Below, one piece after another: positions 1-19,373 of a DNA stretch of 64,000 nt. Under the pieces are notes generated by a model, which made no database searches, was not told the origin of the DNA, and saw nothing but the letters and a program-made list of their open reading frames with translations. The position numbers were made by a program, and so were the translations under genes. Positions within the stretch are counted from its first letter, which is position 1. Every line of letters begins with the position of its first letter. This DNA comes from Sphingopyxis sp. (GTDB taxonomy: Bacteria > Pseudomonadota > Alphaproteobacteria > Sphingomonadales > Sphingomonadaceae). The stretch spans positions 124,001-188,000 of the forward strand of contig NZ_JAEULM010000002.1 in the NCBI RefSeq assembly GCF_016793825.1, in the 5' to 3' direction.

Positions 1-1486
1 TGATCTTGTGGTCGCCCGTCGCCAGCGCGATATTCTTGGTCTCCATATAGAAGTCGAAGCTCCAGTCCCCCCCGTCGCGACCGATGCCGCTGGCCTTCAC
101 GCCGCCAAAGGGGGTCGGAAGATGGCGGACATTCTCGCTGTTGACCCAGATCATCCCGGCTTCGAGCCGGTTCGACACGCGCAGCGCGCGGCCGAGATCG
201 CGCGTCCAGACATAGCCGGCGAGGCCGTAGTCGACGGCGTTGGCCTTTGCGATGGCGTCCTCTTCATCGTCGAAGGCGATCGCGGTCAGCACCGGACCGA
301 AAATTTCCTCCTGCGCGATCCGCATCGACATGTCCGCGCCGGTATAAAGCGTCGGCTCGAAGAAAAATCCCGGTCCATCGACTGGCGCGCCGCCGGCCGC
401 GATCGTCGCACCGCCCGCCGTCGCAATGGCCGCATAGCTGGACACCTTGTCCAGATGCCGCTGGTGAATCAGCGGGCCGACTTCGGTGGCCGGATCGAAC
501 GGATCCCCGACCTTCAGCTTGCGAACCCGCTCGACCAGTTTTTCGATGAAGCGGTCGTGGATCGACCGCTGGACCAAGACACGCGACGACGAGGTACAGC
601 GCTGGCCGTTGAGCGAATAGATCATGAACACGACGGCATCGAGCGCGCGATCGAGATCGGCATCCTCGAACACGATCACCGGGTTCTTGCCCCCCAGTTC
701 GAAATGCACGCGCTTCAGCGTTTCGGACCCCTGCCGCATGATCGCACTGCCGGTCTTGCTTTCGCCGACAAAGGCCACCGCCTTGATGCCCGGATGTTCG
801 GTCAGGCGGCGCCCGGTGGTTTCGCCCAGACCGTTGATCGAGTTGAAGACGCCGGCGGGAAGCCCCGCCTCGGTCGCGATCTCGACCAGCAGGCGCGCAG
901 AATAGGGCGACCATTCGGCCGGCTTGTGGACCACACTGCACCCAGCGGCCAGCGCGGGCGCGATCTTCCAGGTCGACAGCATGAAGGGCGTGTTCCACGG
1001 CGTGATCACCGCGACGGGGCCAATGGGATAGCGCGTCGTCAGGTTCATATGCCCTGCGGTGGGCAGCGACTGTCCGTCGTTCGCACCGGGCGCGCGGTCG
1101 GCGAAAAACCGAAAATTCTCTGCGCCGCGCAGCGCCGCCTTCGACATGAAACGCCAGGCCTGCCCGGCGTCGAGACACTCGACCGCGGCGATTTCATCGG
1201 CGCGCGCCACAATGAGGTCGGCGATCTTGTGGAGCACCGCCTTGCGCTCATCACCGGGCGTCCGCGACCAGCGCGCGAAGCCTTCCTCGGCCGCTGCGAC
1301 CGCCGCATTCAGTTCGGCCTCGGTCGCGTCGCGAACCTCGCCCAGCGTCTCGCCGGTCGCGGGGTCGGATACCGGAAACAGGCTTCCCGAACCATCGACC
1401 GGGCACCCGGCAATGTGATGACCAAGCGGGCGATCCCGAAAGCCGGAGGTTGATTTCAGGGCCAATTCACGGCGATTCGAGGGCAT
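1..1486 (-). CDS. hpaE: 5-carboxymethyl-2-hydroxymuconate semialdehyde dehydrogenase, 3' end outside window
   Basis: NAD-dependent aldehyde dehydrogenase that oxidises the ring-cleavage semialdehyde of homoprotocatechuate to the tricarboxylate. Reading the reverse strand from ATG at 1486 gives an uninterrupted frame to the left edge (about 495 residues seen, no stop). The NAD-binding ITPWN motif, the general-base Glu in ELGGKNP (near residue 263) and the nucleophile in GQRCTSSS (Cys297) are present. The C-terminal end (PFGGVKASG, then a KNIALATGDHKI tail) matches HpaE proteins, as I remember them, better than succinate-semialdehyde dehydrogenases. A good ribosome site (CGGGAG) precedes the start. 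The gene is divergent from the hpaG1 operon across a 156-bp gap carrying two operator repeats. Only the last few codons are missing. Confidence 0.88.
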   Translation of the reverse strand, partial: MPSNRRELALKSTSGFRDRPLGHHIAGCPVDGSGSLFPVSDPATGETLGEVRDATEAELNAAVAAAEEGFARWSRTPGDERKAVLHKIADLIVARADEIAAVECLDAGQAWRFMSKAALRGAENFRFFADRAPGANDGQSLPTAGHMNLTTRYPIGPVAVITPWNTPFMLSTWKIAPALAAGCSVVHKPAEWSPYSARLLVEIATEAGLPAGVFNSINGLGETTGRRLTEHPGIKAVAFVGESKTGSAIMRQGSETLKRVHFELGGKNPVIVFEDADLDRALDAVVFMIYSLNGQRCTSSSRVLVQRSIHDRFIEKLVERVRKLKVGDPFDPATEVGPLIHQRHLDKVSSYAAIATAGGATIAAGGAPVDGPGFFFEPTLYTGADMSMRIAQEEIFGPVLTAIAFDDEEDAIAKANAVDYGLAGYVWTRDLGRALRVSNRLEAGMIWVNSENVRHLPTPFGGVKASGIGRDGGDWSFDFYMETKNIALATGDHKI

Positions 1487-1506
1487 GCGGGACTCCCGTT
1501 AATTTG

Positions 1507-1547
1507 TTATCGTGTTAAGTATATAGCTGGATCGGGCCGCGCGTCAA
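1507..1547 (-). promoter_or_regulatory. hpaE promoter with HpaR-type operator copy A
   Basis: On the reverse strand TTGACG (1547-1542), an 18-bp spacer and TATACT (1523-1518) make a good sigma70-like promoter 25-30 bp before the hpaE start. The forward-strand motif TTATCGTGTTAAGTATATAG (1507-1526) covers the -10. The same motif recurs at 1591 and, with 16 of 20 matches, at 13261 over the promoter of the MarR regulator. Binding by HpaR is inferred from this distribution. Confidence 0.65.
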
Positions 1548-1583
1548 ACGTCTTTCTGACCCCTTGCCCATCGGCAGCTCGGG

Positions 1584-1610
1584 TTGACATTTATCGTGTT
1601 AAGTATCATG
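1584..1610 (+). promoter_or_regulatory. hpaG1 operon -35 and HpaR-type operator copy B
   Basis: TTGACA (1584-1589) is directly followed by TTATCGTGTTAAGTATCATG (1591-1610); its first 16 bases are identical to copy A. The copies lie exactly 84 bp apart, about eight helical turns, so they face the same side of the DNA. A well-spaced -10 for the TTGACA is not obvious, because TATCAT leaves only 14 bp. It sits 33 bp before hpaG1, where a repressor would block the operon. Confidence 0.6.
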
Positions 1611-1642
1611 CCGCGACGACAGTTCCACCGCGAGAGGGCATC

Positions 1643-2260
1643 ATGTTTGCAGGCACCGCCTATTGCACCGCGCTGAACGATCGCCGGCAACTGGAGGCGC
1701 TCGACCCGGCGCTCCACCAGCCGCCCTATGCGAATCCGCCGCAGGCGCCCGTGCTCTATATCAAGTCCGGCCATTGTGTCGTCGCCAGCGGTTCGACCGT
1801 GTCGCTCCCTGATCCGACAGATATTCTGGCGGTGGGCGCAACCATCGCACTGCAATGGACGGCGAGCGGCCCGACGACGGCCCGGCTGGCGCTCGATCTC
1901 GCGGTCCCGCACGAGAGTTTCTATCGCCCGGCCATCGGCGAACTCACTCGCGACGGTCTTCTTCCCGTCGGCGCAGCCGCCCCGCGGCCTGACGCGCTCG
2001 ACACGCTGGAGATCGTCACCGAAATCAACGGCACGGCGGTTCATCACTGGAATCTGTCGTATCTGGTGCGCGGTATCGATCGGCTGATCGCCGATGTGAC
2101 CACTTTCATGAGCTTACTGCCCGGCGACATGCTGCTTGTCGGTACCGCCGGCGACCGGCCGACCGCAAAGCGGGGAGATCACGTCAGGGTATCCGCCGCC
2201 GGCTTCGCGCCGGTCGAGGCCGTGATTTCGGGCAGCAACATGCAGGCAGGTCACGCATGA
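1643..2260 (+). CDS. hpaG1: HpaG N-terminal-type subunit (FAH family isomerase/decarboxylase)
   Basis: Fumarylacetoacetate-hydrolase-fold protein of 205 residues, corresponding to the N-terminal half of the bifunctional HpaG/HpcE that decarboxylates and isomerises the product of HpaE/HpaF. The HESFYRPAIGELTRDG stretch, the TEINGTAVHHWN segment and the GDMLLVGTAGDRP segment near the C-terminus are characteristic. Compared with the E. coli half as I recall it, roughly 20-30 residues are missing in the middle, where the AGYALANDV-like strand would be. GAGAGGG precedes the ATG. The stop overlaps the next start (ATGA), so hpaG1 and hpaG2 are probably translated together as a split version of the fused enzyme. 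Confidence 0.82.
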   Translation: MFAGTAYCTALNDRRQLEALDPALHQPPYANPPQAPVLYIKSGHCVVASGSTVSLPDPTDILAVGATIALQWTASGPTTARLALDLAVPHESFYRPAIGELTRDGLLPVGAAAPRPDALDTLEIVTEINGTAVHHWNLSYLVRGIDRLIADVTTFMSLLPGDMLLVGTAGDRPTAKRGDHVRVSAAGFAPVEAVISGSNMQAGHA

Positions 2261-3009
2261 AACACGTCCGTCTGGTCCATGCCGGCCGCGAACAATGGGG
2301 TGTTGTCGCCGATGATGGCGCCACCGTCCGCCTCGCGTCCGGGAAAGCCGTCGCGTGGGACGAGGCAACCCTGCTGCCACCGGTAACGCCGGGTGCGCGG
2401 ATTTTCGCCCTCGGCCTCAACTATGCCGATCATTCGGCCGAACTCGGGTTCAAGGCGCCCGACAAGCCGCTGGTGTTCCTGAAGGGCGTCAATACCCTCG
2501 TCGCCCATGGCGGCACGTCGTATCGCCCGCGCGACGCGCACCAGATGCACCCCGAATGCGAACTCGTCGCTATCATCGGCCAGACGGCGCGCAACGTGGC
2601 CGAAGCGGACGCGCTGTCCTGTGTCGGCGGCTATACGATTGCCTGCGATTATGCCGTGCGCGAATATCTGGAAAACTATTATCGCCCCAACCTGCGCGTC
2701 AAGAATCGCGACGCCCTGACGCCGCTCGGCCCCTGGGTGGTCGATGCCGCCGACATCGCGGATCCGCAAGCGCTCAAGCTGTCGACCACGATCAACGGCG
2801 TCGAAGTGCAGACGGGCTCGACGGCCGCGATGGTGTTTCCGATCGCGCGCCTGATCGCCTATCTGTCGGAGATGCTGACGCTCGAACCCGGTGACATGAT
2901 TCTGACCGGCACGCCGCACGGCGTCGCCTTCGTCGATGAGGACGACGAAGTCATCTGCGACGTCGAATCGATCGGCCGGCTGGTCAATCGCGTGGAACTG
3001 TTGCCATGA
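2257..3009 (+). CDS. hpaG2: HpaG C-terminal-type subunit, 5-oxopent-3-ene-1,2,5-tricarboxylate decarboxylase
   Basis: FAH-family protein of 250 residues equivalent to the C-terminal half of HpaG, the metal-dependent decarboxylase/isomerase step after CHM isomerase. The fold signature GLNYADHSAELG, the acidic metal-ligand segment HPECELVAIIGQ, the YLENYYRPNLRVKNRD stretch and the GDMILTGTP loop are all present, so the active site looks intact. ATGA overlaps join it to hpaG1 and to the LigA-like gene. The intact catalytic half beside a shortened hpaG1 suggests this chain carries most of the activity (inference). Confidence 0.87.
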   Translation: MKHVRLVHAGREQWGVVADDGATVRLASGKAVAWDEATLLPPVTPGARIFALGLNYADHSAELGFKAPDKPLVFLKGVNTLVAHGGTSYRPRDAHQMHPECELVAIIGQTARNVAEADALSCVGGYTIACDYAVREYLENYYRPNLRVKNRDALTPLGPWVVDAADIADPQALKLSTTINGVEVQTGSTAAMVFPIARLIAYLSEMLTLEPGDMILTGTPHGVAFVDEDDEVICDVESIGRLVNRVELLP

Positions 3010-3332
3010 GCCTGTACCAGCTTTCGAAACTGTTGTTCGAACTGAACCGCGACACGGCGATCCAGGCCGAATTCACCGCCGACGCGGGGTCGGTCGTCGC
3101 GCGATACGACCTCGACGACGAAGAGCGGCGGGCCATCCTCGACGCCGATATCGGGCTGCTCTACGTCCTCGGGGTGAACGGCCAGATATTGATGCATTTC
3201 GCCGCGTTCAAACAGATCGCGTGGGCCGACTATCTGCAACTTATGCGCGACGGCGTGCGCGACCACGGCCCGGTCCGGGCGGGCGTCTATGCGATGACCA
3301 CGGGTCTCGACGAAAAGGTAGCGGGCGTATGA
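3006..3332 (+). CDS. LigA-like small (alpha) subunit of extradiol dioxygenase
   Basis: A 108-residue all-alpha protein resembling LigA, the small subunit of protocatechuate 4,5-dioxygenase (for example SLYQLSKLLFELNRD, DEERRAILDADIGLLYVLG and the conserved HFAAF segment). In LigAB the small subunit caps the active site and carries no metal. It is coupled by ATGA overlaps to hpaG2 upstream and to the catalytic LigB-like gene downstream, so a heteromeric enzyme with that neighbour is very likely. A LigA partner is not part of the classical hpa gene set, where HpaD is one chain. Substrate is unproven. Confidence 0.82.
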   Translation: MSLYQLSKLLFELNRDTAIQAEFTADAGSVVARYDLDDEERRAILDADIGLLYVLGVNGQILMHFAAFKQIAWADYLQLMRDGVRDHGPVRAGVYAMTTGLDEKVAGV

Positions 3333-4147
3333 CCTTGGTATTCACAGGAATCTGCAGCCACGGCCCCGGCATTACCGGTCGCGCCGACCTGGCCCCGCCC
3401 GACCTGCGCGATCCCTTTTTCGCCGCCTATGGCGCGATGCGCGACGCCTTGCACGCGGCCCGTCCCGACGCGGTGATCATCGTCGCGGCCGAACATTTCG
3501 CCAATTTCTTCATGAACAACATGCCCAGCTTCGCGATCGGCATGGCCGACGGCTATGAAGGACCGATCGAAGACCCGGACTGGCTGAAGATTCCGCGGCG
3601 GCGCGTCCGCGGCGATGCCGCGCTGTCGCAGCGAATCGTGGCCGAAGTCCAGCAGAGCGTCGATGTCGCCTATGCCGAGGAGTGGAAGTTCGACCATGGC
3701 ATCATGGTGCCGCTGAGTTTCCTCGATCCCGACAACCGGCTCACGATCATTCCCGCGAACATCAATTGCCAGGGTCCGCCGCTGGCTCCGCTGGCGCGCG
3801 CCTATGCCTTTGGCGAGGCGCTGCGCCGCGCCGCGGACAAGGTGCCGGAACGCATCGCGCTGATCGGCACCGGCGGTATTTCGCACTGGCCGGCCACCCC
3901 CGACAGCGGGCGGATCAACGAGGAATGGGATCGCGAATTCCTGCGCCGCTGGTCGCTCAACGACAAGGCGCAATTGCTCGACTACACCGACGCGCAAACC
4001 TATGCCGACGCCGGACAGGGCGGGTTTGAAATCCGCACGCTGATCGCGGCCGCCGCTGCGGCGCGCGGGCCCGGCACCGTCCATTTCTTTGCGCCGATCC
4101 CGATCTTCAGCACCGGCTGCTTCGTCGCGACGGCGGAGATCGCCTGA
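3329..4147 (+). CDS. LigB-like catalytic subunit, class III extradiol dioxygenase (probable homoprotocatechuate dioxygenase)
   Basis: Fe(II)-dependent ring-cleavage subunit of 272 residues. The expected residues are visible: His11 (CSHGPG), His56 (AEHFANFF), His123 (FDHGIMVPL), His186 (GTGGISHW) and Glu234 (GGFEIRT), matching the two metal His, the two second-sphere His and the metal Glu of LigB. Start is the ATG in the ATGA overlap with the LigA-like gene. Being inside an otherwise complete hpa set argues for cleavage of 3,4-dihydroxyphenylacetate to 5-carboxymethyl-2-hydroxymuconate semialdehyde. That is proximal (2,3) cleavage, whereas LigAB on protocatechuate cleaves distally. The substrate is inferred from context. 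Confidence 0.83.
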   Translation: MTLVFTGICSHGPGITGRADLAPPDLRDPFFAAYGAMRDALHAARPDAVIIVAAEHFANFFMNNMPSFAIGMADGYEGPIEDPDWLKIPRRRVRGDAALSQRIVAEVQQSVDVAYAEEWKFDHGIMVPLSFLDPDNRLTIIPANINCQGPPLAPLARAYAFGEALRRAADKVPERIALIGTGGISHWPATPDSGRINEEWDREFLRRWSLNDKAQLLDYTDAQTYADAGQGGFEIRTLIAAAAAARGPGTVHFFAPIPIFSTGCFVATAEIA

Positions 4148-4536
4148 TGGCCCACGCAACCGTGGAATGGACCGATAATCTGGAGGGACGGTTCGACCTG
4201 CCCGGCCTGCTGTCGCTGATCGCGGCGGAGATGCGCGAAAGGTCGGGCGGGGTTTTTCCCGTCGGCGGCATTCGCGTCCGCGCCATCCGCCTCCATGACT
4301 ATGTGATTGCCGACGGTGCGGGCGCCGACGACGCCTTCATCAACATCGACATCAAGATGGGGGTTGGCCGCGACGCCGCGTTCAAACAGGCCTTCTTCAC
4401 CCAGATGTTCGACGCGGTGAAGGCGCATCTTGGCGACCTGTTCGACCGGCAGCCGCTCGCGCTGTCGCTCTATGTCGAGGAAAGCGAAGGCTGGAAGCAT
4501 AATTCGATCCACAAGCGCCTCGGCGCCAAGGCCTGA
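4147..4536 (+). CDS. hpaF: 5-carboxymethyl-2-hydroxymuconate delta-isomerase
   Basis: A 129-residue tautomerase-superfamily protein matching HpaF/CHMI, which isomerises 5-carboxymethyl-2-hydroxymuconate to the 2-oxo form before decarboxylation. The chain begins AHATVEWTDN; CHMI uses Pro1 as catalytic base after Met removal, but here residue 2 is Ala, so the first residues do not match the Pro1 rule even though the rest fits (VGGIRVRAIRLHDYVIADG, HNSIHKRL). ATG shares one base with the preceding stop (TGATG). Length is normal. It sits between the dioxygenase and the hydratase, in pathway order. Confidence 0.82.
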   Translation: MAHATVEWTDNLEGRFDLPGLLSLIAAEMRERSGGVFPVGGIRVRAIRLHDYVIADGAGADDAFINIDIKMGVGRDAAFKQAFFTQMFDAVKAHLGDLFDRQPLALSLYVEESEGWKHNSIHKRLGAKA

Positions 4537-4545
4537 AGGCAGTAT

Positions 4546-5352
4546 ATGACATTGCAACCCGAACAGATCGACGCGCTGGCGGCCGAACTCGACGCGGCCG
4601 AGCGCGCCCGCACCCAGATCTCGCAATTCTCGCTTCGCCATCCCGACATGACGATCGAGGATGCCTATGCCGTCCAGCGCGCATGGACGCGCCGCAAGCT
4701 GGCGGACGGGCGCCAGGCCATCGGCCACAAGATCGGCCTGACCAGCCGTGCGATGCAGCGGTCGTCGAACATCGACGAACCCGATTACGGCCTGCTGCTC
4801 GACGATATGCTGTTTCCCGACGGGCGGGATATTCCCATCGGCCGCTTCATCGTGCCGCGCGTCGAGGTTGAGCTGGCGTTCCGGCTCAAGCACCGGCTGT
4901 CGGGTCCCGACTGCACGATTTTCGACGTGCTCGACGCCACCGACTATATCGTCCCGGCGATCGAGATCATCGACGCCCGGATCGAACAGATCGACAAGGC
5001 GAGCGGCGTCACGCGCAAGGTTTTCGACACCATATCTGACAATGCCGCGAACGCCGGGCTTGTCCTCGGCGGCCGACCGGTGCGGCCGATGGACGTCGAC
5101 CTGCGCTGGGTGTCGGCCCTGATATTCCGCAACGGCGTGATCGAGGATTCGGGGGTAGCAGCGGCGGTGCTGGGTCATCCCGCCCACGGCCCTGCGTGGC
5201 TCGCCAACAAGCTGCATCCCTATGGCGAGACACTGGAACCCGGCGAGATCATCCTCGGCGGCAGCTTTACCGCGCCGGTCCCGGCCAAGGCGGGTGACAG
5301 CTTCCACGTCGATTTCGGGCCGCTAGGCACCATTTCGGTGCGCTTCGCATGA
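4546..5352 (+). CDS. hpaH: 2-oxo-hept-3-ene-1,7-dioate hydratase
   Basis: A 268-residue member of the hydratase/decarboxylase (MhpD/HpaH) branch of the FAH superfamily. It adds water to 2-oxo-hept-3-enedioate to give 4-hydroxy-2-oxoheptanedioate. [13 protein letters not shown], the [11 protein letters not shown] stretch, the metal-ligand region [10 protein letters not shown] and the C-terminal [14 protein letters not shown] loop are as expected. Ten bases separate it from hpaF, and it overlaps hpaI by ATGA. MhpD-like 2-oxopent-4-dienoate hydratase is the main alternative, but the neighbours and Mg-site sequence favour HpaH. Confidence 0.88.
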
Positions 5353-6110
5353 GCGACTTTCTGCAGTGGATCGATGCAGGGCGACCGCGCGCGATGCTGG
5401 GCCTGTGGCAAGCACTCGCCACGCCCTATACCGCCGAAATCTGCGCTCGCGCCGGGTTCGACTGGCTGTTGTTCGACGGCGAACATGCCCCCAACACGGC
5501 GCAGACGCTGCTCGCGCAGCTACAGGCCGTCACGCCCTTTCCGCTGCACCCGATCGCGCGCGTTCCGATCGGCGATCCGGTACATATCAAACAATATCTC
5601 GACATCGGCTTTTCCACGCTGCTCGTGCCCATGGTCGACAGCGCGAATCAGGCCAGGGCGATCGTCGCAGCCTCGCGCTTCCCGCCCCGCGGCACCCGCG
5701 GCGTCGCCAGCGCCACCAGCCGCGCCTCGGGATTCGGCAGCGACGCCAACTATCTGAAGGACGCGCACGACCGCGTCGGCATCATCGCGCAGATCGAAAG
5801 CGGCGCCGCGCTGGAGCAGGTCGAGGCCATAGCTGCGGTCGAGGGCATCGACGGATTGTTCGTCGGCCCCGCCGACCTTGCAGCCTCGCTCGGCCACCTC
5901 GGCAATCCGCGCCATCCCGACGTGCAGGCGGCGATCGAAAGCGCCCGGCTTGCCATTGCCGCCGCTGGCAAACCGGCAGGCATTTTCGCCCTCGACGCCG
6001 ACGACGCAAGGCATCGCGCGGAGCAGGGGTTCACCTTCATTTCGATCGGCACCGACATCGGTTTGCTCGCAAAAGGCGCGGCCGCACTGCTCGATAGCTG
6101 TTCAGCGTAA
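5349..6110 (+). CDS. hpaI: 4-hydroxy-2-oxoheptanedioate aldolase
   Basis: Class II pyruvate aldolase of 253 residues that splits 4-hydroxy-2-oxoheptanedioate into pyruvate and succinate semialdehyde, the last hpa reaction. Strong signatures: [15 protein letters not shown], the [17 protein letters not shown] segment, [25 protein letters not shown] with the metal Glu, and [13 protein letters not shown]. Length equals E. coli HpaI. It overlaps hpaH by ATGA and is 33 bp ahead of an aldehyde dehydrogenase able to take the semialdehyde. Confidence 0.92.
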
Positions 6111-6143
6111 CGCGGCGCCCCGCCGCCTCAAGGAAACAGAATC

Positions 6144-7556
6144 ATGTCAGACCAGGAATTTCCGCTCTTCATCGGCGGCAAGGCCGTGCCCGGCACCGGC
6201 AGCTTTGCCGTCATCGATCCCGCGACGGGCGAGGCCTTTGCCGAATGCGCGCTTGCATCGACCGACCAGCTTGACGAGGCCGTCGACGCCGCACGCGCCG
6301 CGTTCCCCGCATGGGCGGCGATGCCGATAGAAGACCGCGCCGCGCGCCTGCTTGCGATCGCCGACGCGATCGAAAGTCGGCAAGGCGAACTCGCAGCGCT
6401 GCTCTCGCGCGAACAGGGCAAGCCGCGGAAATCGGCGATGGGCGAAATCGGCGGCACGCTTTACTGGATCCGCGCGACCGCCGCGCTCCGTCCCGCCATC
6501 GAGCGGGTCGGCGGATCCGAAGGCCCGATCGTCGAACTCCATCGTCGTCCGCTCGGCGTCGTCGGGTCGATCACCCCGTGGAATTTCCCGGTCATGATCG
6601 CGATCTGGCACGTCATCCCGGCACTGCTCGCGGGGAACAGCGTCGTCATCAAGCCGTCGCCCAATACGCCGCTCACCACATTGCGCGTCGTCGCGATCGC
6701 CAACGAGCATCTGTCCGCCGGGGTCTTCAACGCCGTGACCGGCGATGTCGAAATCGGCGGCGCCATGTCGCGGCACCCGGGGATAGACAAGATCGTCTTC
6801 ACCGGGTCGACCCCCACCGGCCGCGCGATCATGCGCGAAGGCGCCGCGAACCTGAAACGCCTGACGCTCGAACTCGGGGGGAACGATGCGGCCATCGTGC
6901 TTCCCGACGCCGACGTGGACGCGATCGCGCCGCGGATTTTCGCTGCGGCATTCGGCAACAGCGGACAGGTCTGCGCCGCGATCAAGCGACTATATGTCCA
7001 CGAGTCAGTCCATGATGCCCTCGCCGCCCGACTGGCGGAGATGGCTGCCGCCGCCACGGTCGGGGCCGGCGACGATCCGGACAGCCAGTTCGGGCCGCTG
7101 CAGAACCGCAAACAGTTCGACTATGTCGCCGCGCTCGCCGACGATGCGCGCGCCGCCGGAGGTCGCTTCCTCACCGGCGGCACAGCCACTACAGGGCCCG
7201 GCTATTTCTTTCCGCTGTCGGTCCTTGTCGATGTTACCGACGGCGTGCGCGCGGTCGACGAGGAACAATTCGGGCCGATCCTGCCGATCGTCCGCTATCA
7301 CGATCCCGAAGACGCGCTCGCACGCGCCAATGCCAACGACAATGGCCTGGGCGGTTCGGTGTGGTCATCGGATGTCGAACGCGCCGCCGCCTTGGCGCAG
7401 CGGCTGCAATGCGGCAGCGTCTGGGTGAACGATCATTCGACGATTTCGCCGACGATCCCCTTTGGCGGTGCCAAGCAGTCGGGAATCGGCGTCGAATTCG
7501 GCCAGCACGGCCTTGACGAATATACCCAGTTGCAGACGGTACGCATTCCCCGCTGA
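6144..7556 (+). CDS. NAD(P)-dependent aldehyde dehydrogenase (succinate-semialdehyde or arylacetaldehyde)
   Basis: Aldehyde dehydrogenase of 470 residues with ITPWNFPV, the Glu in LELGGNDAA, the nucleophile in GQVCAAIKR and the C-terminal PFGGAKQSGIG. Its position directly after hpaI makes oxidation of succinate semialdehyde to succinate the first guess. The LELGGNDAAIV and CAAIKR forms occur in broad-range and aryl aldehyde dehydrogenases, so it could instead oxidise an arylacetaldehyde released by the decarboxylase at 11100. AAGGAAACAG lies just before the ATG. Last gene of the hpaG1 operon. Confidence 0.82.
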   Translation: MSDQEFPLFIGGKAVPGTGSFAVIDPATGEAFAECALASTDQLDEAVDAARAAFPAWAAMPIEDRAARLLAIADAIESRQGELAALLSREQGKPRKSAMGEIGGTLYWIRATAALRPAIERVGGSEGPIVELHRRPLGVVGSITPWNFPVMIAIWHVIPALLAGNSVVIKPSPNTPLTTLRVVAIANEHLSAGVFNAVTGDVEIGGAMSRHPGIDKIVFTGSTPTGRAIMREGAANLKRLTLELGGNDAAIVLPDADVDAIAPRIFAAAFGNSGQVCAAIKRLYVHESVHDALAARLAEMAAAATVGAGDDPDSQFGPLQNRKQFDYVAALADDARAAGGRFLTGGTATTGPGYFFPLSVLVDVTDGVRAVDEEQFGPILPIVRYHDPEDALARANANDNGLGGSVWSSDVERAAALAQRLQCGSVWVNDHSTISPTIPFGGAKQSGIGVEFGQHGLDEYTQLQTVRIPR

Positions 7557-7662
7557 CCGATGTAGACTGGCAACCATCCGTCGCATTGTTGCAGGAGGCT
7601 CGGCTTCGCGCGCCACAAGGTCGCCTTGCCCAAATCGCATTTGTATCGTATAGCAATATTCA

Positions 7663-7679
7663 GTCTCATAATACGAGAC
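7663..7679 (+). promoter_or_regulatory. Inverted repeat before the aminotransferase
   Basis: GTCTCATAATACGAGAC has perfect 5-bp arms (GTCTC/GAGAC) around an AT-rich centre. It lies 13 bp before the aminotransferase ATG and next to its AGAGGAG ribosome site, in a 136-bp gap after the hpa operon. The spacing and symmetry fit a dimeric repressor site; the IclR gene immediately downstream of the aminotransferase is the natural candidate (inference). It differs from the operators elsewhere in the cluster. Confidence 0.5.
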
Positions 7680-7692
7680 AAGAGGAGAGATC

Positions 7693-8883
7693 ATGTTTGC
7701 CGACCTGAGCGATGCACCGCCCGATCCGATCCTGGGAATGGCCCAGTTGTTCGCCGCCGACCCCGACCCCCGCAAGGTCGATCTGGGCATCGGCGTGTAC
7801 AAGGATGACAAGGGCGATGTGATCGTCCTCGACACGGTCAAGAAGGCCGAGCAGTGGCTGGTCGAGACGCAGGCGAGCAAGCGCTACCTCTCCTCCGCCG
7901 GCAACCCCGAGTATAACGACCGCATTCGCGCGCTGCTGCTTCCCGAAGGATCCGATGCCCATGCGCGCGCCCGGACGATCCAGACGCCGGGCGGCACCGG
8001 CGCGCTGCGCGTCGCGGGCGATTTCATCCATCGCCTGCGCCCCGGTGGCCGCATATTCCTCCCCGATCCGACCTGGGCGAACCACCCGGCGCTGTTCAAG
8101 GCGGCCGGCGTCGAGATCGTGACTTATCCCTATTACGACGTCGAAACCGGACGCCTGCGCTTCGATGACATGATCGCGGCGCTCGGCGCGCTGACGGCCA
8201 ACGACACGCTTCTCGTCCATGGCTGCTGCCACAATCCGTCGGGCACCGATCCCGACACGGACCAGTGGAACGCGATTGCCGACGTCCTTGCCAAAACCGG
8301 CGCGATGCCGCTCGTCGACCTCGCCTATCTGGGTTTCGGCGACGGGCTGGAGGAAGATCGCGCTGGCATCAACATCCTCGCGGCCAAATTGCCGCAGATG
8401 ATCGTCGCGAGCTCTTGTTCCAAGAATTTCGCGCTCTATCGCGAACGCACGGGTGCGCTGACGCTGGTCGGCGGTACGCCCAAGCAGGGCGAGGCGGCCG
8501 TCGGGCACCTGCTTCCCGTCGTGCGCGCCAACTATTCGATGCCGCCCGATCATGGCGCGGCGATCGTTGCGCATATCCTTGGCGACGCGGCGCTGCGCGG
8601 CGAATGGGAGATCGAGCTGACCGGAATGCGCACCCGCATTCAGGATGTCCGCCGCAAGCTGGTCGAAGCACTCGACGGGCGCGGCGGCCGCGATTTTTCC
8701 TATCTGGCTGGTCAGAATGGCATGTTCGCGCTGCTCGGCCTTCCGGTCAGCGCCGTGCACAGGCTGCGCGACACCTGGCATATCTACGCCACCGATTCGG
8801 GTCGTGCGAACCTGGCTGGCCTGACGATGGACAATGTCGAACATGTCGCCGAGGCGTTCGCAAGCGTCAGCCAGGGCGGTTGA
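7693..8883 (+). CDS. Aromatic/aspartate-type amino acid aminotransferase
   Basis: PLP-dependent class I fold-I aminotransferase of 396 residues, closest by sequence style to TyrB/AspC. The substrate motif DPTWANH, the CCHNPSG loop, the VDLAYLGFG Asp/Tyr segment and the Schiff-base lysine in SCSKNFALYRERTG (Lys244) are visible; the carboxylate-binding Arg sits in SGRANLAGL. It probably converts tyrosine, DOPA or phenylalanine to the arylpyruvate. In this cluster that feeds a decarboxylase and then the arylacetate pathway. It has its own 136-bp leader with an inverted repeat, so is probably separately regulated. Confidence 0.85.
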   Translation: MFADLSDAPPDPILGMAQLFAADPDPRKVDLGIGVYKDDKGDVIVLDTVKKAEQWLVETQASKRYLSSAGNPEYNDRIRALLLPEGSDAHARARTIQTPGGTGALRVAGDFIHRLRPGGRIFLPDPTWANHPALFKAAGVEIVTYPYYDVETGRLRFDDMIAALGALTANDTLLVHGCCHNPSGTDPDTDQWNAIADVLAKTGAMPLVDLAYLGFGDGLEEDRAGINILAAKLPQMIVASSCSKNFALYRERTGALTLVGGTPKQGEAAVGHLLPVVRANYSMPPDHGAAIVAHILGDAALRGEWEIELTGMRTRIQDVRRKLVEALDGRGGRDFSYLAGQNGMFALLGLPVSAVHRLRDTWHIYATDSGRANLAGLTMDNVEHVAEAFASVSQGG

Positions 8884-8948
8884 AGGCTTGCCTTTTGCCG
8901 CCCGATGATCCCATGCTGCGCCATGTCGGACGGGCGGGTTAGGCACGC

Positions 8949-9689
8949 ATGAACGCAAAAGGCGACGAGCAGTCGGGATCGGTAAAAAGCGTCGAGGTGG
9001 CCGTCCAGATTCTCGACGCGCTGACCGAGGCGACCGGCCCCGTCCGCGTCACCGACCTCGCCCGCGACCTCGGCATGACCAAGGCGCGCGTCTCGCGCCA
9101 TCTGCAAACCCTGTCGATGCTGAAGCTCGTCGAGCGCGCGCCCGCGGGCAGCGGCTACGTGTTCGGCCGCAAGCTGATGAAATACGGCCGCGCGGCAGTG
9201 TACCGCAGCAACATCGTCGAGTTGGCGCAGCCCTATCTTCGCCGGATGCGCGACGAAACGGGGCATACGGCGGTACAGACGCTGCCGACGCGCGACGGAT
9301 CGCTTGTCGTTGCGGCGATGCCGAACGAGTTCGAACCCGGCGTCGCGATCCGGCTCGGCACCCTGCTCGCGTTTCCTCAATCTCCATCGGCCCGCCTCGG
9401 CCGCTTTTTCGAGGGGAGCCGCTTTGCATCGGCGGTGCTCGAGGCGAATCTCGTTCGCTTCGGCCTCGATTTCGAGGTTGATGTCCACGGCAATGGCCTC
9501 GGCGGAATCGCCGCCCCGATTTTCGAGGCCGATGGCAGCCTTGCGACAACCGTCGGCCTCGTGCTGTCGTCGGCGCTCGTCGATCCCGAACCGGCGGCCG
9601 CGCTGATCGCGCAGGTATCGAGTGCGGCCGCCGCGATCCAGGCCCGCTACGCCGAAGGCGCCACGTCGCCGCTGATGCCGGTCGCCTGA
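8949..9689 (+). CDS. IclR-family transcriptional regulator (first copy)
   Basis: 246 residues with an N-terminal winged helix (VTDLARDLGMTKARVSRHLQTL, roughly 35-57, given here in pieces only as the recognition helix TKARVSRHL) and an IclR effector domain ending in GGIAAPIF. It follows the aminotransferase by 65 bp on the same strand and converges with the Rieske gene 10 bp away. IclR proteins commonly control aromatic catabolic operons with an aromatic acid as ligand. Likely targets are the inverted repeat at 7663 or the TAACATGTTA-like sites; the sequence cannot decide. Confidence 0.88.
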   Translation: MNAKGDEQSGSVKSVEVAVQILDALTEATGPVRVTDLARDLGMTKARVSRHLQTLSMLKLVERAPAGSGYVFGRKLMKYGRAAVYRSNIVELAQPYLRRMRDETGHTAVQTLPTRDGSLVVAAMPNEFEPGVAIRLGTLLAFPQSPSARLGRFFEGSRFASAVLEANLVRFGLDFEVDVHGNGLGGIAAPIFEADGSLATTVGLVLSSALVDPEPAAALIAQVSSAAAAIQARYAEGATSPLMPVA

Positions 9690-9699
9690 CCGGCGCGCA

Positions 9700-10887
9700 T
9701 CACGCTTCGGCGGAGATCGTGAAATTGCCCGATCGGGACCGGATCCATTCCTCGCCCGGCGTCTGGGTCCAGCCCACCGGGTCGCTTCCCTCCGCCACCA
9801 GCTTGACCTGACGCGCCAGCAACCGGCGCAGCATCGCGATGCCGGCATCGCTGCTGGCAAGATGCTCCTCCGAATGGAACGCGATCTCGCCCTGGCTGGT
9901 CTGCGCCTCCCAGTCGCCGGGAAAGCGCTGCCGCTCGTCCTCGGTCATCTCGCGCCAGTCCTTGCCGCCCGGCTTGGACCGGATCGCTCCCAGATCGGTT
10001 CCGGGGGCTGCGCGCGCGACATTATAGACCAGATAATGGGTCGAATCGATCGGTACGACAAAGCCGATACCTTCCGTCGGCCCCATCGCCAGCCGCGGGC
10101 TTGGGACCACGCGAACATTGGGTAGCAACGCCTCGGTCACGCGCCGCAGCTTGCTGCCGTCGCCGAGGTCGCGCACCTGTTCGGACCGCACGCCCTGTTC
10201 GAACGCCTCGAACTGCACGTCAGGTTTTACACCCATTTCGGCGACAAATTGAATTCCGCTGAAAGACTGGTGCAAGACGGGGACATGAAACGGATCGACG
10301 ACATTGTCGAAATGCTGCAACCAGTTACACGGAGCAATACCATAGCCGCCCGACCCGAGATTGCTGTCGTCGGCAACGATGACTTCGCCGTCTTGCAAAT
10401 TTTCCAGCAATTCGTATCGCGGCAGCAACGGCTTCTTGTCTGGCGGCCCCATATAGGCAAAGATCAGACCATAACGCTCTTCGACCGGATACCAGGGCTG
10501 ACGAATGCGATCGCGAACCTTGCACCCGTTATCCGGCTCCATCGGCATATCGACGCACCGGCCTTCGACGTCGAACATCCAGCCATGATAGCAGCACCGG
10601 ATGCCCTGTTCTTCGCCGCGACCATAAAAAAGGTCGGCGCCGCGATGCATGCAGCGCGCATGAACAAGGCCGGGCCGCCCTGCCCCGTCGCGAAACAGGA
10701 CCAGGTCCTCCGACAAGATACGGACGCGCCGCGGCGTCGCCGTCGCATCGGCGATCAACCCCACCGGATGCCAGAAGCGCCGCAGATATTCGCCCATCGG
10801 CGTGCCCCGCTCGACCAGCGTCAATTCTTCCCGAAAATGCGGCTTGCGCCCGCTATAACTATACCCGTCCACGCATCCCACTCCCAC
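9700..10887 (-). CDS. Rieske non-heme iron aromatic oxygenase, alpha subunit (first copy)
   Basis: 395 residues. N-terminal phthalate/LigX-type signature GTPMGEYLRRFWHPV, Rieske cluster ligands Cys79-x-His81 and Cys98-x2-His101 (CCYHGW), then the mononuclear iron site NWLQHFDNVVDPFHVPVLH with His201 and His206. This branch includes O-demethylases and ring hydroxylases. GTG at 10887 is used, four bases after GAGG; GTG at 10881 is possible. No ferredoxin or reductase gene is in the window, so electrons must come from proteins coded elsewhere. The promoter region is shared with the divergent thiamine-diphosphate enzyme and holds two palindromes. It may hydroxylate or O-demethylate an arylacetate to homoprotocatechuate. 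Confidence 0.87.
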   Translation of the reverse strand: MGVGCVDGYSYSGRKPHFREELTLVERGTPMGEYLRRFWHPVGLIADATATPRRVRILSEDLVLFRDGAGRPGLVHARCMHRGADLFYGRGEEQGIRCCYHGWMFDVEGRCVDMPMEPDNGCKVRDRIRQPWYPVEERYGLIFAYMGPPDKKPLLPRYELLENLQDGEVIVADDSNLGSGGYGIAPCNWLQHFDNVVDPFHVPVLHQSFSGIQFVAEMGVKPDVQFEAFEQGVRSEQVRDLGDGSKLRRVTEALLPNVRVVPSPRLAMGPTEGIGFVVPIDSTHYLVYNVARAAPGTDLGAIRSKPGGKDWREMTEDERQRFPGDWEAQTSQGEIAFHSEEHLASSDAGIAMLRRLLARQVKLVAEGSDPVGWTQTPGEEWIRSRSGNFTISAEA

Positions 10888-10934
10888 ATTTCCTCGCGAC
10901 TCTGCGCCCGTCGACGGGCCGTCGCAATCACTAA

Positions 10935-10949
10935 TAACATATCATGTTA
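10935..10949. promoter_or_regulatory. Operator-like palindrome TAACAT-N3-ATGTTA
   Basis: Perfect 6-bp arms with a 3-bp centre (ATC), 48 bp before the Rieske start in an AT-rich stretch. It resembles TAACATGTTA at 19381 and TCACATGTTA at 22679, both in front of related catabolic or uptake genes. Probably an IclR-type regulator site (inference). Confidence 0.55.
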
Positions 10950-11030
10950 AATTATTTCGCTCTGTCAATCGATCTTTCCCCGGCGCGGCGCATATTCGCG
11001 CTTGAACCGCGGCGAGCATCGTCATATAGA

Positions 11031-11040
11031 TAACTTGTTA
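11031..11040. promoter_or_regulatory. Operator-like palindrome TAACTTGTTA
   Basis: Imperfect relative of TAACATGTTA (arms TAAC/GTTA), 60 bp before the start of the thiamine-diphosphate enzyme and about 94 bp from the palindrome at 10935 that faces the Rieske gene. The divergent promoters thus each carry one copy of the motif. Confidence 0.5.
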
Positions 11041-11099
11041 AATGATTTGGGAGTCTCCGCGCCATCTCGTGACGGTGATTGCCCGCGAAAATGGAGAAG

Positions 11100-12779
11100 A
11101 TGCACGTGAGCCAATATGCCCCCCAGGAACGGACCGGCGGCGCGGCGCTGGTCGCCCAGTTGATGGAAGAAGGCGTTCGCGACATCTTCGGCATCCCCGG
11201 CATCCAGCTCGACTGGGCGGTCGAGGCGATCCGCCAGCAGGGCGAAAAGCTGCGGCTCATCGTTCCCCGCCACGAACAGGCGACCTCCTACATGGCCGAC
11301 GGCTATGCGCGGACCACCGGGCGCGAGGGGGTCTGCATGGTGGTTCCGGGGCCGGGCATGCTGAATGCCCTGTCGGGAATCTCGACCGCCTATGCCTGCA
11401 ATTCGCCGGTTCTGTTCATCGTCGGCCATATTCCCTCCGACACGATCGGCAAGGGCTATGGCATGCTCCACGAACTGCCCGACCAGTCGGGCATCCTCAA
11501 GAGCCTGACCAAATGGCACGGCATCGCACGCTCCGCCGAGGAGATTCCGGCCCTGGTGAACGAGGCGTTCAAACAGCTTCGTTCGGGCCGGCCGCGTCCG
11601 GTCGCGATTGAACTGCCGACCGACCTGCTGGAGGCCAGGGGAGTGTGCGCCTTGTTGCCGGCGGCGCCCGCCGCGCCGACCGCGCCCAATGACGCCCTGA
11701 TCCGACAGGCGGCCGACCTGCTGGTGAATGCTCGTTTTCCCGTCCTGTACGTCGGCGGCGGCGTCGTCGCGGCGCAGGCGGGCGATGCGGCAAAGGCGCT
11801 GGCCGAGAAGATCCAGGCCCCCCTCGTCACCAGCGAAAACGGTCGCGGCGCGGTCGATGACCGCCACCCGCTCGCTCTGACCGCGCTGGGACGGCGCGCC
11901 GTCCTGCCCCACGCCGACGTCATCCTCGTCGCGGGCAGCCGCTTTCTCGATGGCCATGGCACGCCGATTCAGGCGTCCGAAAACGCGCGTTACATCTATC
12001 TCAACGTCGAATCCAACGATGTCGGCGCCCCGCGCCGGGAAGGTCTGGCCGTGGCGGGCGATGCCCGGGTCGGTCTCGAAGCCCTTCTCGCCGCACTGCC
12101 CGCGGACCTCCAGCGTGAACCGATCGCCGATCGCGTCGCGCTCGTCAAAGCCTGGTCATCCGCGCAGACGGACGCCATCCAGCCGCAAACAGACTATGTC
12201 GCCGCGATGCGTTCGACGATGGCCGACGACGATATTCTCGTCAGCGAACTGACGCAGGTGGGCTATTTCTCGAACATCGGTTTCCCCGTTTATGGCCCCC
12301 ACAGCTTCATCACCCCCGGCTATCAGGGCACGCTGGGCTATGGGTTCAACACTGCGCTGGGCGCCGCGCACGGCAACCCCGACCGTCGTGTCGTCTCGAT
12401 CAACGGCGACGGCGGTTTCGGCTGGGGATTGCAGGAACTGGCGACGGTGGCTCGCGATCAGGTCAATCTGTCGATCGTGGTTTTCGTCGACGGCTTCTTC
12501 GGCAACGTCCGCCGTATCCAGAAGCGCGTCTTCGGGCACGAGATCGGGGTCCAGCTCGTCAATCCGGACTTCGAACATCTCGGCCGCGCTTACGGCCTGC
12601 CGACGCATTCGGTCGACTCGCCCGCCGGGCTTCGGGATGCGCTCGAAACGGCAAAACAGCGCGGCGGACCAGCCCTGATTCAGGTCTCGGTCGGCGAGAT
12701 GCCTAGCCCGTGGGCCTTGATCCATCCGTTCGTGCCGTCGCCCACGCCGGTGCCGCCCAACCCGCTCGGCGAACCCTGA
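11100..12779 (+). CDS. Thiamine-diphosphate-dependent enzyme, acetolactate synthase/2-oxoacid decarboxylase type
   Basis: 559 residues with the three-domain layout of the family. The N-terminal Pyr domain has FGIPG and the activating Glu in RHEQATSYMADGYAR, followed by MVVPGPGMLNALSG. The C-terminal PP domain has the Mg/ThDP motif beginning GDGGFGWGLQELATV and closing with VDGFFGN. Known family reactions include acetolactate synthesis and decarboxylation of 2-oxoacids. Beside an aromatic aminotransferase and hpa genes, decarboxylation of an arylpyruvate to an arylacetaldehyde is the best guess, but it is inference. ATG at 11100 is chosen because GGAG lies seven bases ahead. Divergent from the Rieske gene. 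Confidence 0.8.
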   Translation: MHVSQYAPQERTGGAALVAQLMEEGVRDIFGIPGIQLDWAVEAIRQQGEKLRLIVPRHEQATSYMADGYARTTGREGVCMVVPGPGMLNALSGISTAYACNSPVLFIVGHIPSDTIGKGYGMLHELPDQSGILKSLTKWHGIARSAEEIPALVNEAFKQLRSGRPRPVAIELPTDLLEARGVCALLPAAPAAPTAPNDALIRQAADLLVNARFPVLYVGGGVVAAQAGDAAKALAEKIQAPLVTSENGRGAVDDRHPLALTALGRRAVLPHADVILVAGSRFLDGHGTPIQASENARYIYLNVESNDVGAPRREGLAVAGDARVGLEALLAALPADLQREPIADRVALVKAWSSAQTDAIQPQTDYVAAMRSTMADDDILVSELTQVGYFSNIGFPVYGPHSFITPGYQGTLGYGFNTALGAAHGNPDRRVVSINGDGGFGWGLQELATVARDQVNLSIVVFVDGFFGNVRRIQKRVFGHEIGVQLVNPDFEHLGRAYGLPTHSVDSPAGLRDALETAKQRGGPALIQVSVGEMPSPWALIHPFVPSPTPVPPNPLGEP

Positions 12780-12802: not shown

Positions 12803-13267
12803 TCAGCTTTCGTCGGGAGCGAACGGCGCCAGGGCTTCGCGAAAGGCCACAAGTTCGGAAAGCAGGTTCGTCAGCCGCTCGCGACCGAACGCCTGCGCAT
12901 AATGATTGATCAGGACCAGCGTATGCGCCGCCGTCTCGTCGATCGCGGCGCGGCCCGTCGCCGTGATCTCGATGATCGAACGCCGGCGATCCTTCGCGTC
13001 GAGCTGACGATGGGTCAGCCCGCGGTCGCCCAATTCCTTGAGAATGCGGGTCAGGCTGGGCCCGTGGAGCATCGCCCGGGTTGCCAGAGTCGCGATGTCG
13101 AGCGGCCCCTCATCCGACAGCACGCGCAATACGCGCCATTGCTGCTCAGTGAAATTCGCCGCACGCAGCAGCGGCCGGATCGGCGCCATCGTTGCTTCGC
13201 GGGCGGCCAGTAAAGATCCCGCGATGGAATCGCGATACGGTGATAGCTTCCGTGGTTTCCTCATCAT
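12803..13267 (-). CDS. hpaR: MarR-family regulator of the homoprotocatechuate pathway
   Basis: 154 residues with a MarR winged helix (FTEQQWRVLRVLSDEGPL, HGPSLTRILKELGDRG, LDAKDRRRSIIEIT). The N-terminal MAPIRPLLRAANFTEQQWRV region matches HpaR/HpcR repressors, which release DNA on binding hydroxyphenylacetates. Two adjacent ATGs (13267 and 13264) lie inside operator copy C and there is no ribosome site; the -10 (TATACT, 13277-13272) would start the transcript at or next to the ATG, so the message is probably leaderless. It converges with the thiamine-diphosphate gene. Autoregulation and control of hpaE and hpaG1 are inferred from the shared motif. Confidence 0.87.
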   Translation of the reverse strand: MMRKPRKLSPYRDSIAGSLLAAREATMAPIRPLLRAANFTEQQWRVLRVLSDEGPLDIATLATRAMLHGPSLTRILKELGDRGLTHRQLDAKDRRRSIIEITATGRAAIDETAAHTLVLINHYAQAFGRERLTNLLSELVAFREALAPFAPDES

Positions 13268-13301
13268 GATAAGTATATGGCCGAATCCGGGCAAAGGGCA
13301 A
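13261..13301 (-). promoter_or_regulatory. hpaR promoter with operator copy C
   Basis: Reverse-strand TTGCCC (13301-13296), 18-bp spacer, TATACT (13277-13272). The forward sequence TCATCATGATAAGTATATGG (13261-13280) matches copy A at 16 of 20 positions and covers both the -10 and the start codon. It contains the palindrome ATCATGAT. Layout is the same as at hpaE. Confidence 0.6.
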
Positions 13302-19315: not shown

Positions 19316-19373
19316 CTTCGTCCCCGATTTTCGTTGATTTGCTGGGGCCGCGCTATCCTTTCGTCTCGACACT

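What the first reader, a model, noticed from the sequence alone, without database searches (positions are those of the whole stretch)
1..12779. Aromatic amino acid or arylacetate route into homoprotocatechuate
A complete lower hpa pathway is joined to an aromatic aminotransferase, a ThDP decarboxylase-like enzyme, an extra aldehyde dehydrogenase and a Rieske oxygenase. In order these could turn tyrosine/DOPA or a methoxylated relative into arylpyruvate, arylacetaldehyde, arylacetate, homoprotocatechuate, then pyruvate and succinate. The usual HpaB/HpaC hydroxylase is absent from the window, so the Rieske enzyme may replace it or may O-demethylate homovanillate.
Basis: partly seen in the sequence, partly recalled or inferred. 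Interest (0 to 1): 0.72.

Follow-up and report, generated by a model that had tools for sequence, protein, structure and literature searches.

The report
Tyrosine-type amino acid breakdown island
A rare gene island in a sphingomonad bacterium probably breaks down modified, perhaps cross-linked, tyrosine through homoprotocatechuate, with unusual oxygenases in place of the textbook ones; the exact substrate is not yet known.

Summary
The genes are real and intact. The lower homoprotocatechuate (HPC) pathway stands next to an aromatic aminotransferase, a thiamine-diphosphate (ThDP) enzyme, an aldehyde dehydrogenase and a Rieske oxygenase; HpaB is absent from the genome. Three corrections. (1) Ring cleavage is by a two-subunit LigAB-type dioxygenase, not HpaD. 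(2) The Rieske enzyme is about 49% identical to Sca/PobA, a carboxydiphenyl-ether dioxygenase. (3) The unit runs on to about 19.4 kb: FAD monooxygenase (FMO), LigZ-like extradiol dioxygenase, two FAH proteins, LigXa-like Rieske oxygenase. ThDP, Rieske1, FMO, LigZ-like, FAH3 and FAH4 relatives are linked again in four genomes of the Roseateles family; Aminobacter has the set with LigY/RraA-type genes instead of FAH. The FMO, in 19 of 47 ThDP loci, is a better candidate than the Rieske enzyme for the missing hydroxylase. Most likely function: aromatic amino acid to arylacetate to HPC to pyruvate and succinate. The biaryl and diaryl-ether enzyme families suggest, without proof, a cross-linked tyrosine (dityrosine or isodityrosine).

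The parts
2..1486 (-). HpaE, 5-carboxymethyl-2-hydroxymuconate semialdehyde dehydrogenase
   Evidence: TIGR02299 732 bits, cut-off 638
1643..2260 (+). HpaG N-terminal-half-like isomerase/decarboxylase (G1)
   Evidence: TIGR02305 148 bits, below cut-off 229
2257..3009 (+). HpaG C-terminal-half-like isomerase/decarboxylase (G2)
   Evidence: TIGR02303 308 bits, cut-off 276
3006..3332 (+). LigA-type small subunit of the extradiol dioxygenase
   Evidence: PF07746 45 bits, cut-off 25
3329..4147 (+). LigB-type catalytic subunit, proposed homoprotocatechuate 2,3-dioxygenase in place of HpaD
   Evidence: PF02900 119 bits; best solved relative is LigB of protocatechuate 4,5-dioxygenase; HpaD_Fe only 35 bits; 67-68% relative beside HpaE and a CHMI-like gene in G208
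4147..4536 (+). HpaF/CHMI, carboxymethyl-hydroxymuconate isomerase-like
   Evidence: NF011605 74 bits, below cut-off 215
4546..5352 (+). HpaH hydratase
   Evidence: TIGR02312 446 bits, cut-off 351.5
5349..6110 (+). HpaI aldolase
   Evidence: TIGR02311 316 bits, below cut-off 369, best match
6144..7556 (+). aldehyde dehydrogenase (ALDH2), proposed arylacetaldehyde dehydrogenase
   Evidence: ALDH family, no curated cut-off reached among the 25 models shown; 64% relative in the LigZ-like cluster of G108
7693..8883 (+). aromatic amino acid aminotransferase
   Evidence: NF006719 501 bits, cut-off 377
8949..9689 (+). IclR-type regulator 1; relatives recur beside the core genes in Aminobacter, G006 and G473
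   Evidence: PF09339
9700..10887 (-). Rieske oxygenase 1, PobA-like; proposed attack at C3/C4 of a substituted phenylacetate
   Evidence: 49% to Sca; tree
11079..12779 (+). ThDP enzyme of subfamily PRK08266, proposed arylpyruvate decarboxylase
   Evidence: 702 bits, cut-off 571; 47 loci
12803..13294 (-). HpaR-like MarR regulator
   Evidence: TIGR02337 114.5 bits, just below cut-off 121.2
13358..14404 (-). FAH-family protein 3
   Evidence: 57-58% relatives in G006 and G473
14329..16032 (-). FAD monooxygenase (FMO), proposed ring hydroxylase; the frame overlaps LigB2, exact start not settled
   Evidence: NF004780 677 bits, cut-off 445; FAD_binding_3; in 19 of 47 ThDP loci; tree
15975..16997 (-). 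LigZ-like class III extradiol dioxygenase (LigB2)
   Evidence: PF02900 76 bits; about 41% to the gene in the LigZ position of L090/L091; tree
17032..17994 (-). FAH-family protein 4
   Evidence: PF01557; 67-70% in G473 and G006
18032..19381 (-). Rieske oxygenase 2, LigXa-like
   Evidence: PF19301 LigXa_C 51 bits, cut-off 27; 57% to the gene in the LigXa position of L090/L091
19395..20249 (+). IclR-type regulator 2
   Evidence: best model PcaR/PcaU/PobR family, 78 bits, below its cut-off
20341..22623 (-). TonB-dependent receptor by reading of the sequence, possible substrate uptake
   Evidence: 84% in S. terrae at the same place; not scanned against a family library

Best explanation
A catabolic island of about 25 kb (from the GabD-like gene left of the window to about 22.6 kb) feeds an aromatic amino acid into homoprotocatechuate (HPC). 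Inferred steps: the aminotransferase makes an arylpyruvate; the ThDP enzyme decarboxylates it; ALDH2 oxidises the aldehyde to an arylacetate; ring oxygenases (the FMO and/or PobA-like Rieske1, in place of HpaBC) give HPC; LigAB opens the ring; HpaE, G, F, H, I and GabD finish to pyruvate and succinate. The linked LigXa/LigZ-like, FMO and FAH operon probably serves a two-ring form of the substrate, which would make the natural substrate a modified or cross-linked tyrosine rather than tyrosine alone. Shown: gene content, families, absence of HpaB, conserved linkage. Inferred: every reaction and the substrate.
For: Families and curated scores. No HpaB in the genome. Aminotransferase plus ALDH in 17 of 44 ThDP loci (ThDP 250 bits or more), ALDH directly downstream on the same strand in 18, FMO in 19 of 47. 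hpa lower genes beside the ThDP module in S. terrae, S. colocasiae and P. caffeinitolerans and in Aminobacter ciceronei; HPC-type genes with a VOC dioxygenase in Aquabacter and actinobacteria. HpaE over cut-off in all 10 tested genomes that have Rieske1 linked to ThDP; 17 of 23 genomes in that call, 2 of 14 controls. ThDP, Rieske1, FMO, FAH3, FAH4 and LigZ-like relatives clustered in G006, G027, G389 and G473. The window's LigZ-like clade (100/95) holds 8 proteins, all ThDP-linked. LigAB with HpaE, a CHMI-like gene and a copper amine oxidase in G208.
Against: No biochemical evidence. ThDP and ALDH families fix no substrate. HPPD is present. LigZ-like genes were within reach in only 6 of 47 ThDP loci and Rieske1 in 9. 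Of the 28 genomes with a Rieske1 hit in the Roseateles family I saw ThDP linkage in 4 (G006, G027, G389, G473), though several contigs are short. G118 and G108 have ThDP-linked LigZ-like genes but no HpaE over cut-off. How common HpaE is in these families was not measured. A flavin oxygenase elsewhere in the genome (L005) could hydroxylate 4-HPA, though it is nearer HsaA than HPAH C2. S. terrae is a close relative, and G006, G027 and G389 are close to each other, so they are weak independent evidence.
Confidence: 0.6

Rival explanations
1. Plain tyrosine/4-HPA or DOPA route: aminotransferase, ThDP and ALDH2 give 4-HPA or DOPAC, the FMO hydroxylates 4-HPA to HPC (not needed for DOPA), then LigAB and hpa. 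The LigZ/LigXa-like operon is an unrelated neighbour.
For: In Nonomuraea and Microbispora the FMO sits with aminotransferase, ThDP, ALDH, an HpaE-like ALDH, FAH or RraA domains and (L039, L041, L051) a VOC dioxygenase, without LigZ-like genes in the stretch seen, and G017, G019 and G026 have no HpaB. S. colocasiae and P. caffeinitolerans have the module plus hpa without FMO or LigZ-like genes in the stretch seen.
Against: LigZ-like, FAH3, FAH4, Rieske1 and FMO relatives stand together with the module in G006, G027, G389 and G473; more ring oxygenases than one hydroxylation needs.
Confidence: 0.3
2. Homovanillate or 3-methoxytyrosine route: Rieske1 (or LigXa-like Rieske2) O-demethylates to HPC.
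For: Rieske2 carries the LigXa_C domain, and LigXa is the oxygenase of DDVA O-demethylase (PMC6874591 passages); G208 couples LigAB and HpaE with a Rieske oxygenase and a reductase.
Against: Rieske1's nearest characterised relative is an aryl-ether dioxygenase; no Rieske2-like gene was found near the module in the Aminobacter and G006/G027/G389/G473 stretches read.
Confidence: 0.15
3. The ThDP enzyme acts on non-aromatic 2-oxoacids (its second-best named subfamily is 5-guanidino-2-oxopentanoate decarboxylase), and the cluster is a patchwork.
For: Second-best NCBIfam match is PRK07524, 367 bits, below its cut-off of 500.
Against: Recurrent partners in several phyla are aromatic catabolic genes; the neighbouring transaminase matches the aromatic subfamily.
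Confidence: 0.1

Closest known systems
hpa homoprotocatechuate meta-cleavage pathway
   Same: HpaE, G, H, I and HpaR-like genes; HPC to pyruvate and succinate (chemistry recalled)
   Different: LigAB-type dioxygenase instead of HpaD; no HpaB; aminotransferase-ThDP-ALDH beside it
PobAB / Sca carboxydiphenyl ether dioxygenase
   Same: Rieske1 is about 49% identical; PobA-type attack at positions 3 and 4 of the carboxylated ring gives protocatechuate plus phenol (PMC11026547 passages; that paper itself identified phenol)
   Different: Rieske1 lies across a well supported fork from Sca, has no reductase gene beside it, and would act on phenylacetates
DDVA (5,5'-dehydrodivanillate) pathway of SYK-6: LigXa, LigZ, LigY
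   Same: LigXa-like Rieske2 and LigZ-like LigB2 close together, TonB receptor nearby
   Different: FAH proteins, no LigY-type gene; FMO added; IclR instead of MarR next to Rieske2; LigB2 belongs to a distinct ThDP-linked clade
4-chlorophenylacetate 3,4-dioxygenase of Pseudomonas sp. CBS3 (recalled)
   Same: a two-component oxygenase that turns a 4-substituted phenylacetate into HPC
   Different: recalled only; no paper in the listing held the substrate name, no sequence compared

Membership tests
hpa HPC meta-cleavage pathway | HpaE, HpaG, HpaH, HpaI set next to each other | tested here: met
   E, G2 and H over cut-off, G1 and I below
hpa HPC meta-cleavage pathway | HpaD ring-cleavage enzyme (TIGR02298) in the cluster | tested here: not met
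   LigB 35 bits, cut-off 316; LigAB pair instead
hpa HPC meta-cleavage pathway | HpaB hydroxylase in the genome | tested here: not met
   0 matches to PF03241
PobA carboxydiphenyl ether dioxygenase | falls inside the PobA/Sca clade | tested here: not met
   other side of a 100/98 fork
PobA carboxydiphenyl ether dioxygenase | adjacent PobB-type reductase | tested here: not met
   no match among called window ORFs (small ferredoxins under 80 aa would be missed); an Aminobacter reductase query gave no match in the genome (which had no positive control)
PobA carboxydiphenyl ether dioxygenase | aryl ether cleavage activity | not testable with these tools
   no assay
LigXa/LigZ biphenyl (DDVA) pathway | LigXa-like and LigZ-like genes clustered | tested here: met
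   LigZ and LigXa identity inferred from gene order in L090/L091, not from the SYK-6 sequences
LigXa/LigZ biphenyl (DDVA) pathway | LigY-type hydrolase beside LigZ | tested here: not met
   no hit of the LigY-like profile in the first 24 kb of the window; FAH3 and FAH4 instead
Arylpyruvate (IPDC/PPDC-type) decarboxylase | arylpyruvate decarboxylase activity | not testable with these tools
   three TPP domains present; the best solved matches are acetolactate synthases
HPAH C2-type 4-HPA hydroxylase elsewhere in the genome | clear C2 orthologue | tested here: inconclusive
   20 PF08028 hits; five of the 20 scanned; the one oxygenase-like candidate is nearer HsaA (176 bits) than C2 (142 bits)

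The most novel reading that the evidence does not exclude
The island is the first recognised pathway for oxidatively cross-linked tyrosine. Dityrosine: both side chains go through aminotransferase, ThDP and ALDH to a biphenol diacetate; the FMO (or HpaB, or Rieske2) adds an ortho hydroxyl; the LigZ-like enzyme opens one ring; FAH3/FAH4 cut the C-C bond, leaving 3-carboxy-4-hydroxyphenylacetate; Rieske1 (or the FMO) decarboxylates it oxidatively to HPC for LigAB and hpa. Isodityrosine (diaryl ether): PobA-like attack by Rieske1 would give two HPC.
Probability: 0.3. Interest if true: 0.78.

Novelty: new variant of a known kind. Interest (0 to 1): 0.56.

Why it matters
It would show how bacteria recycle modified tyrosine, possibly the cross-links of plant extensins, insect cuticle, fungal spore walls and oxidised protein (sources recalled); two paper searches listed no bacterial pathway for these (listings only). 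It also names candidates for three kinds of enzyme: a LigAB-type HPC dioxygenase, an arylpyruvate decarboxylase in the subfamily PRK08266 that NCBIfam calls hypothetical, and an FAD hydroxylase replacing HpaBC.

Tried and rejected
3-Nitrotyrosine route via a denitrase (recalled): the paper search listed nothing on a bacterial pathway; not pursued. Rieske1 as a VanA-type O-demethylase: only the Rieske domain was found by Pfam, closest characterised kin PobA-like. FMO as a strict HbpA homologue: RebC scores far higher (269 against 131 bits), so no substrate is read from it. HPAH C2 orthologue: not clear. tRNA-Val at 23028-23103 as integration site: no shared stretch of 13 bases or more with the left flank. 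Reductase partner for Rieske1: no match in the own genome (no positive control). A count of label changes on the LigZ tree gave 2 for 13 linked of 43 rows; nothing was shuffled, so I do not use it as a test. The LigZ sample is partly biased: S. terrae, Aminobacter and Herbiconiux came from the ThDP search. In the LigB2-led searches, ThDP linkage was seen at 2 of 21 places other than the own one (flanks of all 21 read; several contigs only 4.6-5.6 kb) and at 4 of 19 (flanks of 15 read; G706:C22, G436:C259, G436:C129 and G345 not read). Those six, with the window and S. terrae, make up the window's clade. Weak ThDP-family matches (89-95 bits) also lie near three other LigZ-like genes (L185, L186, L187) and were not counted. 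The Aminobacter and Herbiconiux LigZ-like proteins are ThDP-linked but outside the clade. The count of aminotransferase plus ALDH was first made by hand as 17 of 47 and then by script: 17 of 44, or 18 of 47 with the distant L058.


Full report
Setting. The window is G000:C4:124001-188000 of a 3.86 Mb genome. Its genes from G1 to the TonB receptor align one for one with Sphingopyxis terrae at 78-94% protein identity, 64% for G1 (L012), so I take it for a Sphingopyxis-like sphingomonad (inference). The island is rare: of 296 sampled genomes of the order, Rieske1 occurs in 1 (itself), LigB in 2, LigB2 in 17, the own genome included each time; none of the 15 other same-genus genomes listed in those calls has any of the three.

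Observation. Families were assigned with NCBIfam and Pfam. HpaE, G, F, H and I are present, followed by ALDH2, the aromatic aminotransferase, an IclR regulator, Rieske1, the ThDP enzyme and an HpaR-like regulator. Left of the window lie a GabD-like SSADH (over the SSADH cut-off), an MFS carrier and a peptidase-like gene on the HpaE strand; SSADH would oxidise one product of HpaI (recalled chemistry). HpaB is absent. HPPD is present at C4:205371-206399, outside the window; HmgA was not tested.

Ring cleavage. The enzyme in the HpaD place is a LigA/LigB pair. Its catalytic subunit is closest among solved structures to protocatechuate 4,5-dioxygenase, 89 bits, against 30 bits for a 3,4-dihydroxyphenylacetate dioxygenase. 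In G208 a 67-68% relative stands with LigA, HpaE, a CHMI-like gene, an FAH protein, an HpaR-like gene, a DHDPS-like protein, a copper amine oxidase, a Rieske oxygenase and a reductase, which supports an HPC role outside this island.

Rieske1. On plasmids its relatives include a 1,230-bp gene of Sphingobium baderi SC-1 near a VanB-type reductase. Passages of PMC11026547 describe sca of the same strain, 1,230 bp, on a plasmid, its product 96% identical to PobA and acting on diphenyl ethers; they ascribe to PobA-type enzymes an attack at positions 3 and 4 of the benzoic acid ring giving phenol and protocatechuate. That the two genes are one is inferred from strain, replicon type and length. Rieske1 is 49% identical to it, Rieske2 33%. 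In the tree Rieske1 falls with the other ThDP-linked and many unlinked sequences, separated from Sca by a 100/98 fork; the G473 copy lies among unlinked ones. By analogy Rieske1 would attack C3/C4 of a phenylacetate and release an aryloxide, alkoxide, carboxyl or water, giving HPC; which one is unknown.

ThDP module. 47 loci encode relatives of the ThDP enzyme, 44 of them with 250 bits or more in my profile search. Aminotransferase and ALDH both occur in 17 of the 44, ALDH directly downstream on the same strand in 18, FMO in 19, Rieske1 in 9, LigZ-like in 6 (thresholds of my own). The FMO ranges from Alphaproteobacteria to actinobacteria; in a quick tree the ThDP-linked ones group apart from two plasmid relatives. 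In Nonomuraea and Microbispora it stands with an HpaE-like ALDH, FAH or RraA domains and in three loci a VOC-type dioxygenase. This makes the FMO a good candidate for the missing hydroxylase. HpaB was found in 12 of 32 genomes of ThDP loci; among eight with Rieske1 linked to ThDP (G000, G001, G003-G006, G023, G027) it is present in three.

The second operon. FAH3, FMO, LigB2, FAH4 and Rieske2 follow on the minus strand, the FMO frame overlapping LigB2. G203 and G305 carry MFS, a LigB2-like gene (about 41%), two 219-224-residue genes, a 332-residue gene and, after a gap, a Rieske2-like gene (57%) followed by a regulator-sized gene; in G203 these were identified as MFS, RraA, RraA, Amidohydro_2 and MarR. 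SYK-6 has ligZ SLG_07720, ligY SLG_07750 and ligXa SLG_07770, with ddvK and ddvR in the cluster (passages of PMC12997858 and PMC6874591). Order and families match, so I infer that LigB2 is LigZ-like and Rieske2 LigXa-like; I had no SYK-6 sequence.

Linkage. G006 (Roseateles toxinivorans, the genome of L017), G027 and G389 carry Rieske1, a ferredoxin, a porin, a peptide-type ABC system, ThDP, ALDH, aminotransferase, FMO, IclR1, HpaB-type, FAH4, FAH3 and LigZ-like genes within about 29-34 kb; G473 has FMO, FAH4, IclR1, HpaB-type, LigZ-like, FAH3, Rieske1, aminotransferase, ALDH and ThDP in about 18 kb. Identities of the G006 and G473 genes to the window: Rieske1 55-61%, ThDP 59-65% (one a fragment), FMO 60-63%, FAH4 67-70%, FAH3 57-58%, LigZ-like 44%, IclR1 38-48%. 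Four Aminobacter genomes have aminotransferase, ThDP, Rieske1, FMO, LigZ-like, Amidohydro_2 and RraA genes, and in A. ciceronei an hpa cluster with a VOC dioxygenase lies next to them. G118 has aminotransferase, ThDP, LigZ-like, ALDH and HpaB-type genes; G108 has ThDP (41%), LigZ-like, ALDH2 (64%), FAH4 (81%), Rieske2 (78%) and an Amidohydro_2 gene. In the tree of 43 LigZ-like proteins the window's clade (100/95) has eight members, all ThDP-linked; the Aminobacter proteins fall in another clade with the G203/G305 genes, and Herbiconiux outside both on a long branch.

HPC as product. HpaE scores over its cut-off in 17 of 23 genomes, including all 10 with Rieske1 linked to ThDP; it does not in G118, G108, G203 and G305, and falls just short in G029 and G030; 2 of 14 controls pass. 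hpa clusters lie elsewhere in G389 and G006. The background rate in these families was not measured.

Reading. The supported core is aromatic amino acid to arylacetate to HPC to pyruvate and succinate, with HpaBC and HpaD replaced. The recurring company of biaryl (LigZ, LigXa) and diaryl-ether (PobA) enzyme families with an amino-acid module suggests a two-ring tyrosine derivative; dityrosine and isodityrosine fit the chemistry, but no enzyme has been assayed. Paper searches for a bacterial dityrosine pathway listed none (listings only, 20 of 21 and 12 of 327 papers shown). Searches on Rieske/homovanillate, dihydroxyphenylpyruvate and arylpyruvate decarboxylase showed no title or abstract start that describes this island; those papers were not read.

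Noticed in passing
23028-23103: A tRNA-Val gene (minus strand) lies just beyond the right end of the island; no repeat of 13 bases or more on the left flank was found.
   Followed up: partly
L088 (G208): LigAB, HpaE, a CHMI-like gene and a copper amine oxidase with a Rieske oxygenase and reductase: looks like a catecholamine or methoxyphenylethylamine version of the HPC route.
   Followed up: partly
L019, L020, L023, L024: In Paraburkholderia a sulfatase-MFS-MarR group (identified in L019; same clusters in the others) stands beside the ThDP-ALDH-aminotransferase module; a sulfated tyrosine-type substrate is conceivable.
   Followed up: no
L052:12372-16194: Two frames of one cluster, one matching serine carboxypeptidase S10, near Rieske1 and ThDP in a gammaproteobacterial MAG; with the peptide-type ABC systems of G006 and its kin this hints at peptide-borne substrates.
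   Followed up: no
L062: A PobA-like gene with a VanB-type reductase is present twice, on either side of an IS1071 transposase gene, on a Rhodococcus pyridinivorans plasmid, a sign of recent spread.
   Followed up: no
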